From the NCBI GenBank assembly GCA_002428805.1, contig DIXX01000047.1, positions 8,581 to 58,290 on the forward strand: a DNA stretch of 49,710 nucleotides, in the 5' to 3' direction. Shown piece after piece: positions 34,641-35,956 of the stretch. This DNA is from Cetobacterium sp. UBA6069. GTDB lineage: Bacteria; Fusobacteriota; Fusobacteriia; Fusobacteriales; Fusobacteriaceae. The position numbers and the translations under genes are program-made. The first letter of the stretch is position 1, and every line of letters starts with the position of its first letter. The notes beneath the pieces are model-generated. The model was not told where the DNA came from. It ran no database searches and saw nothing but the letters and a program-made list of their open reading frames with translations.

Positions 34641-35621
34641 TTATAATAATGGAATATCCTTCAATCTACACTCTTCTAATACCTCTTCTGGCCATAGAGA
34701 TGATTGAACCTCTCCAATGTGAAGTTTGTCTAAGAAGAATAAGCAAAGTCTCGATTGCCCTATTCCTCCACCTATTGTGTAAGGTAACTCTCCTGCTAAC
34801 AATTTTTTATGGAAATCTAAAGTTTTTCTATCTTCTGCTCCTGCAATCTCTAACTGTTTAGCTAGTGATTCTTCTGATACACGAATTCCCATCGAAGAAA
34901 GCTCTAATCCAATTTTTAAAGGTTCATAGTAAACAATTATATCTCCATTTAAATCCCAATCATCATAGTCTGGAGCTCTTCCATCATGTTTTTCTCCAGA
35001 AGCTAAAGCTTTTCCTATTTGACTTATAAATATCGCTCCATGCTTTTCTGCATGCTTATGCTCTCTTTCTTTTGGAGTTAATTCTGGATAAATAGTCTCT
35101 AACTCTTGTGAAGTTACAAATGTTATTTCCTCAGGTAATTTCTTTGACAATTGAGGATAAGCCTCTCTTATGTGAAGCTCTGTATCTTTTAAAGATGTAT
35201 ATATTTTTTTTACAGTTTCGTGTAATTTATCTGTTGTTCTATCCTCTTTTTCTAAAACTTTTTCCCAATCCCATTGATCAACATAGTATGAGTGTATCGG
35301 ACTTAAATCCTCGTCTCTTCTGATTGCATTCATATCTGTATAAAGACCTTTTCCTGAATCGAAACCATATTTATGAAGTGCCATTCTTTTCCATTTTGCT
35401 AACGAATGAACAATAACAGCATCTTGTTTGCATTTTGTATCAAAAGCTACTGCTCTTTCGATTCCGTTTAAATCATCATTTAATCCACTTTCTGGTGTTA
35501 CAAATAATGGTGCCGAAACTCTTGTTAAATCTAACTTTTTAGCTAAATCCCTTTCAAAGAAATCTTTTACCTTTTTAATTGCTACCTCTGTTTCAATAAC
35601 TCCTAATTTTGCTTTATACAT
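34641..35621 (-). CDS. asnA: Aspartate-ammonia ligase (asparagine synthetase A)
   Basis: 326 aa from the ATG at 35621. The ATG 15 bp upstream is rejected because GGAGG lies within its first codons and [12 protein letters not shown] matches the family N-terminus. The class II aminoacyl-tRNA-synthetase-like fold is recognised by [47 protein letters not shown] and [10 protein letters not shown]. It makes asparagine from aspartate, ammonia and ATP. Upstream lie an Asn-rich leader peptide and a terminator (35642-35887) with their own promoter, so expression is probably attenuated when Asn-tRNA is charged. The hydEGF genes follow in the same direction. Confidence 0.95.
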
Positions 35622-35641: not shown

Positions 35642-35696
35642 TTATAAAAATAAAAAGCTCTTAACACTTCCATCAATGGAAATAGTTAAGAGCTTT
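35642..35696 (-). terminator. Leader terminator (attenuator) upstream of asnA
   Basis: On the minus strand AAAGCTCTTAAC pairs perfectly with GTTAAGAGCTTT (35685-35696 with 35654-35665), and TTCCA pairs with TGGAA inside. The tail TTTATTTTTAT follows, ending about 20 bp before the asnA start. There is no promoter between it and asnA, so it must be read through for asnA expression. Confidence 0.85.
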
Positions 35697-35749
35697 AATC
35701 TAACAAAATATAATATACCTATTTTTAGATATACTTATACTTACTTAAT

Positions 35750-35887
35750 TTAGTTAAATTTAAATTCTTTCTTATTTTCAGGGTAATGGAAATTACACAA
35801 TACAAATCTCAATAAATTATTATTGTTGTTATTATTATTATTCATATTATTAACACAATTATTATTATTATTGAAATTTATAAACAT
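35750..35887 (-). CDS. Asparagine-rich leader peptide of asnA
   Basis: A 45-codon frame too short for usual calls. ATG at 35887, stop TAA at 35750-35752. GGAGG lies 5 bp before the start (complement of 35893-35897). Twenty of the 45 codons are AAT or AAC: residues 4, 6-10, 13-14, 16-24 (nine in a row), 32, 38 and 45. It starts MFINFNNNNN and ends KKEFKFN. It sits between a consensus promoter and an intrinsic terminator in front of asnA. Such a peptide is expected of a translational sensor: a ribosome starved for Asn-tRNA would stall at the Asn run. The peptide itself probably has no other role. Experimental support is lacking here. Confidence 0.85.
   Translation of the reverse strand: MFINFNNNNNCVNNMNNNNNNNNNLLRFVLCNFHYPENKKEFKFN
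35784..35793 (-). promoter_or_regulatory. Antiterminator segment in the asnA leader
   Basis: On the minus strand ATTTCCATTA (leader codons 32-35) can pair with TGATGGAAGT of the terminator (complement of 35666-35675), ten pairs with two G-T. Nine bases, ATTTCCATT, recur in the terminator's own 5' arm (complement of 35675-35683). It lies 24 nt beyond the run of Asn codons, so a stalled ribosome leaves it free and a moving one covers it. Confidence 0.6.
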
Positions 35888-35927
35888 AACTTCCTCCTTT
35901 TTAAAAATTTATTTTTACTATGGGGTA

Positions 35928-35956
35928 ATAATAAAACTTTTTTGTATAAATGTCAA
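35928..35956 (-). promoter_or_regulatory. Promoter of the asnA leader transcript
   Basis: On the minus strand a perfect TTGACA (complement of 35951-35956), 17 bp, and TATTAT (complement of 35928-35933). The start site would be near 35921, about 34 nt before the leader ATG. It lies right after the stop of the HAD gene. Confidence 0.8.

What the first reader, a model, noticed from the sequence alone, without database searches (positions are those of the whole stretch)
35642..35956. Unannotated asparagine-codon leader peptide and terminator upstream of asnA
Seen: promoter TTGACA-17-TATTAT, Shine-Dalgarno GGAGG, a 45-codon frame with 20 Asn codons (nine consecutive at codons 16-24), then a 12-bp-stem terminator with T tail, then asnA. 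Known: his, trp, leu and ilv operons use leader peptides rich in the regulated amino acid, and asnA in Firmicutes is often under T-box control or, in enterobacteria, AsnC. I am not aware of a described Asn-rich leader attenuator for asnA. Inference: ribosome stalling on Asn codons when Asn-tRNA is scarce permits asnA transcription.
Basis: partly seen in the sequence, partly recalled or inferred. Interest (0 to 1): 0.93.

Follow-up and report, generated by a model that had tools for sequence, protein, structure and literature searches.

The report
Asparagine-sensing leader attenuator of asnA
In a Cetobacterium-type bacterium and many of its relatives, a tiny gene packed with asparagine codons and a transcription stop signal sit just before asnA, the gene for making asparagine, and together they likely form a switch that would let asnA be copied only when asparagine runs short.

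Summary
At 35956-35642 (minus strand) lie a promoter, a Shine-Dalgarno site, a 45-codon frame with 20 Asn codons (nine in a row), a 19-bp terminator with a T tail, then asnA. It is not a chance AT-rich repeat. Of 80 asnA loci in 98 Fusobacteriota genomes, 36 carry an Asn-rich leader, in seven genera of one family plus a weak case in another. By one automatic criterion 33 of 34 leader loci, but 1 of 45 others, have a terminator before asnA. Dense Asn tracts hold 290 AAT and 34 AAC codons and no AAA or AAG. Folding with a ribosome placed on the leader gives a predicted antiterminator (leader codons 36-45 with the terminator's 5' arm), free when the ribosome is on Asn codons and masked at the stop. 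Best read as ribosome-mediated attenuation sensing Asn-tRNA; no expression data exist here. Beyond it, Thr-rich leaders with terminators precede thrS in five related genera, and T-box matches in the phylum lie at asnS and asnB but at no asnA. Ten capped literature searches showed no earlier Asn leader for asnA; one relevant 2010 survey could not be read.

The parts
35928..35956 (-). sigma-70-type promoter TTGACA-17-TATTAT
   Evidence: 11 of 12; a promoter-like pair of at least 9 of 12 matches lies upstream of 32 of 34 leaders (best pick within 110 nt)
35893..35897 (-). Shine-Dalgarno GGAGG of the leader
   Evidence: sequence; GGAGG just before the start in the other nine complete g1 leaders too
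35750..35887 (-). Asn-rich leader peptide ORF, 45 aa, 20 Asn
   Evidence: retained in relatives
35816..35842 (-). run of nine Asn codons (codons 16-24)
35868..35882 (-). leader hairpin 5' arm, pairs with 35815-35801
   Evidence: 96.9% of cells paired in 10 relatives, no compensatory change
35801..35815 (-). leader hairpin 3' arm
35753..35793 (-). predicted antiterminator 5' arm in the leader tail: 35793-35784 with 35675-35666, 35780-35773 with 35684-35677, 35769-35753 with 35704-35688
   Evidence: constrained folding; inferred, not shown
35706..35742 (-). spacer hairpin enclosed by the predicted antiterminator (35742-35726 with 35721-35706)
   Evidence: two pairs with compensatory changes in relatives
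35654..35696 (-). intrinsic terminator stem-loop, 19 bp
   Evidence: four pairs with compensatory changes in relatives
35647..35653 (-). T tail TTATTTT of the terminator
34641..35621 (-). asnA, aspartate--ammonia ligase (regulated gene)
   Evidence: TIGR00669; PF03590

Best explanation
The region between the promoter and asnA is likely a ribosome-mediated transcription attenuator that would read the supply of Asn-tRNA through a 45-codon leader with 20 Asn codons. Shown by sequence: promoter-like site, ribosome-binding site, leader, terminator hairpin and asnA, in that order. Inferred: when asparagine is scarce a ribosome stalls on Asn codons 4-24; leader codons 36-45, still free, pair with GUUAGAUUAAAGCUCUUAACUAUUUCC (35704-35678) and take up the terminator's 5' arm, and RNA polymerase runs on into asnA. 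Inferred: when asparagine is plentiful the ribosome runs to the stop codon (modelled footprint 35770-35740), masks the antiterminator arm, the 35696-35654 hairpin forms and transcription stops. Predicted without any translation: the leader start pairs with 35796-35788 and the terminator is favoured. Relatives in other genera (g4, g5, g13, g14) are predicted to reach the same outcome with another helix chain: GGAUUUG (or AGGUUUG) just after the Asn run pairs with CAAAUCC, which otherwise pairs with a third segment that is itself the antiterminator.
For: Asn-rich leader at 36 of 80 asnA loci of the phylum: 34 by script, G005 with contig cut, G018 with an insertion between leader and asnA. Terminator before asnA by one automatic criterion in 33 of 34 leader loci against 1 of 45 others. 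Dense Asn tracts of 33 distinct leaders: 290 AAT, 34 AAC, no AAA or AAG. Compensatory changes: 16 cells in g4+g5 and 17 in g1 against 5.1 and 5.6 in shuffles, 0 of 500 as high, most of them in the terminator. The terminator's energetic advantage is weaker with the ribosome on the dense Asn tract than at the stop in 30 of 33 sequences. Pairing of the terminator's 5' arm with upstream RNA is on average 0.19 higher for stalling than for the stop; with everything between the Asn tract and the terminator shuffled it is -0.004, and 0 of 40 shuffle replicates (highest 0.04) reach the real mean; for the window 0 of 40. A covariance model from g4+g5 finds, beyond its 14 training sequences, G018, g13 and five of six g14 leaders. 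AsnS above cut-off is found in 33 of the 34 genomes that hold the 36 leaders (not in G061, 81% complete), and above-cut-off AsnB in none of them.
Against: No expression, ribosome-profiling or termination data. In the window the energy advantage on codons 14-22 (-15 kcal/mol) is close to that at the stop (-17); it is weakest on codons 4-10 and 23-28. In g14 the energy scan is flat, three of five slightly the wrong way, though the pairing test is positive in all five. G013, G031a and G034a go the wrong way in the pairing test. On the MAFFT alignment the 2:3 and 3:4 helices of the g4+g5 type show no covariation above shuffles; the swap test favours own partners for them but hardly for 1:2, and g4 binds others' segments as well. 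The counts of further pair types do not exceed shuffles. RNAalifold did not recover the g1 antiterminator. Half of g4, one of two g2, two of three g11 and all g3, g6 and f4 asnA loci have no such leader. GatB is also present, so Asn-tRNA might be made without free asparagine.
Confidence: 0.86

Rival explanations
1. The Asn codons are a slippage-prone AAT repeat without function, and the hairpin only ends transcription from the upstream HAD-hydrolase gene.
For: AAT repeats occur elsewhere in some relatives, and leader length varies between species.
Against: A promoter-like site lies between the upstream gene and the leader. 324 AAY codons and no AAR in the dense tracts. Terminator and leader co-occur, 33 of 34 against 1 of 45. 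(AAY)5ATG occurs only at asnA leaders in 61 genomes.
Confidence: 0.04
2. A T-box or an unknown riboswitch senses tRNA or asparagine directly, and the small ORF is incidental.
For: T-box matches lie at Asn genes in the phylum (asnS, asnB), and at asnA in six of the 15 loci outside Fusobacteriota among the 20 scanned.
Against: No T-box at gathering level in the 60 of 80 asnA loci scanned (the matches there are tRNAs and, downstream of asnA in L023, a SAM riboswitch). None of the 27 T-box hits of the more lenient phylum search lies at an asnA (filters strict, weak ones can be lost). The feature shared across unlike RNA folds is the Asn codon run.
Confidence: 0.05
3. The leader controls translation of asnA or encodes a small protein with its own function.
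For: The frame is kept over many species and has a good ribosome site.
Against: The leader ends 128 nt before the likely asnA start (113 nt before the upstream ATG) with a full terminator between; asnA has its own GGAGG; length and flanking residues differ between species, and a second leader type of unlike sequence has the same Asn run.
Confidence: 0.03

Closest known systems
Ribosome-mediated attenuators of trp, his, leu, ilv and phe operons in Proteobacteria (recalled) and in Actinobacteria (PMC1262725: search listing, and a term search without a hit for asn or Fusobacteria)
   Same: Leader peptide with runs of the regulated amino acid, intrinsic terminator, predicted competing antiterminator, gene of that amino acid's supply downstream.
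   Different: Asparagine as the sensed amino acid, asnA as target, Fusobacteriota as host; the g4/g5/g13/g14 type has one more helix in the chain than trp (recalled), so that the 1:2 helix would favour read-through.
Histidine leader peptides of hisS/hisZ in bacilli (PMC2965389, passages seen)
   Same: Leader peptide found outside Proteobacteria and Actinobacteria, in place of a T-box.
   Different: Other amino acid, gene and phylum; a term search of its main text found no asparagine or Fusobacteria.
T-box leaders of asnA in Bacillota and of asnS/asnB in Fusobacteriota
   Same: Same presumed input (charging of tRNA-Asn) and output (read-through of a terminator before Asn genes).
   Different: T-boxes bind tRNA directly and need no translation (recalled); no T-box match here.
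uORFC-8-2 cysS leader of Rhodobacterales (PMC8632094, passages seen)
   Same: Cognate-codon uORF plus attenuator-like structure found by comparative genomics.
   Different: Cysteine, cysS, alpha-proteobacteria. That study included a Fusobacteria genome; a term search of its main text found no asn; its supplements were not readable here.

Membership tests
Ribosome-mediated transcription attenuator (leader-peptide type) | Translatable short ORF rich in codons of the amino acid made by the downstream gene | tested here: met
   20 of 45 codons Asn before asnA; conserved in relatives. Translation itself not shown.
Ribosome-mediated transcription attenuator (leader-peptide type) | Intrinsic terminator between leader ORF and gene | tested here: met
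   35696-35654 with T tail; 33 of 34 leader loci
Ribosome-mediated transcription attenuator (leader-peptide type) | Alternative antiterminator that excludes the terminator and is placed so that ribosome position decides | tested here: inconclusive
   Predicted; direction as expected in 30 of 33 by energy and by pairing, 0 of 40 shuffle replicates as high; covariation of the antiterminator not shown
Ribosome-mediated transcription attenuator (leader-peptide type) | Ribosome stalling at the codons on amino-acid starvation raises read-through | not testable with these tools
   needs expression data
T-box leader | Match to the T-box family RF00230 (Stem I with specifier, antiterminator) | tested here: not met
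   no match at the locus and none in the held part of this genome
Known riboswitch or other Rfam regulatory RNA | Match to a curated family | tested here: not met
   only chance-level matches (best E 1.3)

The most novel reading that the evidence does not exclude
Fusobacteriaceae run a general leader-peptide attenuation system on a recodable RNA scaffold: Asn codons switch asnA, Thr codons switch thrS (12 thrS loci in five genera, one of them found by the asnA covariance model itself). It works side by side with T-boxes that read the same tRNA-Asn at asnS in the same cells, so that one tRNA's charging is read by two unrelated mechanisms for two genes of one pathway.
Probability: 0.5. Interest if true: 0.82.

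Novelty: new member of a known kind. Interest (0 to 1): 0.7.

Why it matters
If true, it adds asparagine to the amino acids sensed by leader-peptide attenuation and brings the mechanism to Fusobacteriota. It also gives a clean comparison of T-box and leader peptide as interchangeable sensors of the same tRNA at the same gene (asnA) across phyla, and at neighbouring steps of one pathway within single genomes. The two unlike leader architectures that share little but the Asn run let one ask directly what selection keeps in an attenuator.

Tried and rejected
Scripts read 15 minus-strand loci in the wrong orientation and so reported no leader in the window's own genome; corrected, and only later counts are used. 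A first shuffle control (real 0.23, shuffled 0.09, 0 of 40 replicates as high, 28 of 33 above their own shuffle mean) shuffled only what follows the last Asn codon of the whole leader, which in g1 left most of the leader tail in place and used the best of three positions; it was replaced, which shuffles all between the dense Asn tract and the terminator and averages the positions. RNAalifold on alignment A2 without the terminator's 3' arm did not give the antiterminator seen in single sequences. The 2:3 and 3:4 helices counted on alignment A1 gave no covariation signal, in part because a GGGC group is shifted by one column. The swap test used 18 of 20 sequences of that type (G055 and G059 dropped because the motif search missed them). 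Asn-rich leaders upstream of asnB (13 loci, one of them only 335 nt) and asnS (6 loci): none found. Percent identities of whole regions were not informative and are not used. The ribosome scan on 12 thrS leaders is mixed: Thr codons weaker than stop in six, equal or the other way in six, all of those g14. Literature: ten searches of the open PMC library, seen as listings that were capped (for example 20 of 435, 20 of 87); no listed paper describes an Asn leader for asnA. Papers looked into by term search and passages only: PMC2965389, PMC1262725, PMC8632094, PMC9026213, PMC4448311, PMC4833913.

Full report
What is there. On the minus strand, between a HAD-family hydrolase gene (36681-35965) and asnA (35621-34641; TIGR00669), the sequence reads: promoter-like TTGACA-17-TATTAT (35956-35928), GGAGG (35897-35893), an ORF of 45 codons (35887-35750) with 20 Asn codons, nine in a row at codons 16-24, a spacer hairpin, and a 19-bp terminator (35696-35654) with a T tail. 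The simple scanner missed the terminator.

Where it comes from. The held genome G000 is a 1.73-Mb incomplete assembly. Its AsnA is 95% identical to that of an uncultured Cetobacterium sp. (L081), and contig lengths tie three other members of its genus (G010, G011, G013) to uncultured Cetobacterium records. I therefore call genus g1 Cetobacterium. 'Fusobacteriaceae' for family f1 rests on such titles.

Is it conserved. 78 of 98 Fusobacteriota genomes have asnA, at 80 loci. A leader with ATG, ribosome site and dense Asn codons was found by script at 34 loci. G005 shows the Asn tract but its contig ends inside the leader. G018 has leader and terminator about 900 nt upstream, with an insertion before asnA. 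So 36 of 80: g1 11 of 11, g2 1 of 2, g4 6 of 12, g5 9 of 9 loci (7 genomes), g11 1 of 3, g13 1 of 1, g14 6 of 6, g29 1 of 1 (another family; only four Asn, weak), g3 0 of 3, g6 0 of 2, family f4 0 of 30. Among the 80 best AsnA relatives of the named collection, four loci carry such a leader, all Fusobacteriota; none of the 71 loci outside Fusobacteriota does (L097 and L133 have under 200 nt of upstream DNA).

Is it under selection as Asn codons. In the dense tracts of 33 distinct leaders there are 290 AAT and 34 AAC codons, and no AAA or AAG; interruptions are codons such as TGT, TAT, TTC and GGC. A bare AAT repeat would be expected to change at its third base to A or G as well. The sequences are related, so these are not 34 independent events. 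The pattern (AAY)5ATG occurs in 14 of 61 family genomes, once in each, always at the asnA leader; the reversed control pattern gave four sites.

Terminator. A hairpin with T tail follows every one of the 34 leaders except in G056, where leader and asnA are joined closely (a 62%-complete assembly, so possibly an artefact). By one automatic criterion within 260 nt, 33 of 34 leader loci and 1 of 45 other loci have a terminator (Fisher p 6e-20, relatedness ignored; G018 counts among the 45 and G005 was left out). Stems change with compensation: in g4+g5 four terminator pairs and one leader:spacer pair, in g1 four terminator and two spacer-hairpin pairs; the number of such cells exceeds all 500 shuffles, the number of further pair types does not.

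How it would work. I folded each of 33 sequences with a ribosome footprint at every codon and compared ensembles with and without the terminator. The terminator's advantage is smaller with the dense Asn tract in the A site than with the stop codon in 30 of 33. For the window it is -7 to -15 kcal/mol over Asn codons 4-24 and -17 at the stop; it is weakest on codons 4-10 and 23-28, and -15 on codons 14-22. With the RNA cut before the terminator's 3' arm, pairing of its 5' arm with upstream RNA is higher on stalling than at the stop in 30 of 33 (mean difference 0.19). With all sequence between the Asn tract and the terminator shuffled, the mean is -0.004, and none of 40 replicate means (highest 0.04) reaches the real one; 30 of 33 exceed their own shuffle mean; for the window 0 of 40 shuffles reach it; G013, G031a and G034a go the wrong way. 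In the window the antiterminator is leader codons 36-45 with 35704-35677, topped by 35793-35784 with 35675-35666; a ribosome on Asn codons 4-24 leaves it free and one at the stop covers it. With no ribosome the leader start pairs with 35796-35788 and the terminator is predicted to form.

Second architecture. In g4, g5, g13 and g14 most leaders are short and end in an Asn run, Met (or Leu), one or two residues and often Gly-Phe. GGAUUUG (AGGUUUG in most g4) after the Asn run pairs with CAAAUCC in the spacer; that segment also pairs with a third one (GGUACAAAUC with GAUUUGUACC), and the third with the terminator's 5' arm (UUGUACCCGA with UCGGGUACAA). In a swap test over 18 of 20 sequences, own partners bind better than partners from other groups for 2:3 (-13.2 against -9.9 kcal/mol) and 3:4 (-13.6 against -10.2), and little better for 1:2 (-12.1 against -10.9). 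On the plain alignment 2:3 and 3:4 show no covariation. A covariance model from 14 g4+g5 loci finds these again, plus G018, g13 (E 1e-9) and the five terminator-bearing g14 leaders (E 7e-7 to 5e-9), so these are probably one family; it does not find g1 (strict filters). In g14 the energy scan is flat although the pairing test is positive in all five.

Setting. AsnS above its cut-off is present in 91 of 98 genomes and in 33 of the 34 that hold an Asn leader. AsnB above cut-off is present in 12 of 98 and in none of those 34. So there AsnA is the only recognised asparagine synthetase, and free asparagine can be charged directly. GatB is also present in G000.

Other sensors. T-box matches at E up to 1e-3 number 27 in 20 of 98 genomes, two of them over the gathering score. 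By coordinates against lie upstream of asnS, 12 upstream of asnB, 3 upstream of AsnS-like genes under the cut-off, and 2 are unassigned; none is at an asnA, and none of the 12 g1 genomes has one. The three alignments seen (G054 asnS, G042 asnB twice) read AAC where the specifier codon is expected (position recalled). In G053, G054, G055, G056, G057 and G059 asnS has a T-box match while asnA has the Asn leader. Outside Fusobacteriota six of 15 asnA loci scanned have a T-box (the other five of the 20 scanned are Fusobacteriota, none with a T-box).

Thr leaders. The model's one extra hit (G044, E 7e-4 for one genome, rough; 98 genomes were searched) lies before thrS and covers a leader MLGYFSSTTKTTI. 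Among 70 thrS upstream regions examined, 12 have a Thr-rich leader: g8 3 of 3, g9 1 of 1, g11 1 of 3, g13 1 of 1, g14 6 of 8; a terminator hairpin follows in all 12 (in G053 only by the looser criterion). The window's genus has none there (0 of 12). The ribosome scan supports the same direction in six of the 12, not in the six g14 ones.

Verdict. The mechanism is of a known kind; amino acid, gene and phylum appear new within the literature I could search (capped listings). A 2010 survey of attenuators in bacteria is not held, so an earlier mention is possible. What is shown is anatomy, conservation and a codon pattern that fits selection for Asn; stalling, read-through and the antiterminator are inferred.

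Noticed in passing
L236, L255, L267, L270, L289, L297, L273, L274, L276, L279, L280, L284: Thr-rich leader peptides (for example MLYGVFFDTTTTLTNK, MRLLTTTTDTFI) with a terminator upstream of thrS in five Fusobacteriaceae genera: a likely second cognate-codon attenuator.
   Followed up: partly
L166-L169, L182, L183 and coordinates: T-box matches, most below Rfam's gathering score, upstream of asnS and asnB in Fusobacteriota; in tandem before asnB in G042, G043 and G046.
   Followed up: partly
G024:C53, G040:C1, G044:C54 (coordinates): A T-box match before an AsnS-like gene under the cut-off, with a gatB nearby on the same strand; looks like a tRNA-dependent Asn or Asp/Asn charging operon.
   Followed up: no
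L237 (G018): An insertion with a masked stretch separates the Asn leader and terminator from asnA, so asnA there is likely uncoupled from the attenuator.
   Followed up: no
L061, L064 (G031) and L050, L059 (G034): Two asnA copies per genome, each with its own Asn leader.
   Followed up: no
L065 (G056): Asn leader followed closely by asnA without spacer or terminator; deletion or assembly fault.
   Followed up: no
L053 (G003) against L063 (G002): Two members of one genus differ: one has the Asn leader, the other a promoter-like site directly before asnA; likely loss or gain of the attenuator.
   Followed up: no
window 34566-32144: hydE and hydG ([FeFe] hydrogenase maturases) lie directly downstream of asnA on the same strand; they could share its transcript.
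   Followed up: no
L201 (G008:C3 311490): A long poly-Asn repeat that appears to lie inside another small gene, the only other (AAY)7 place among the 12 g1 genomes.
   Followed up: partly
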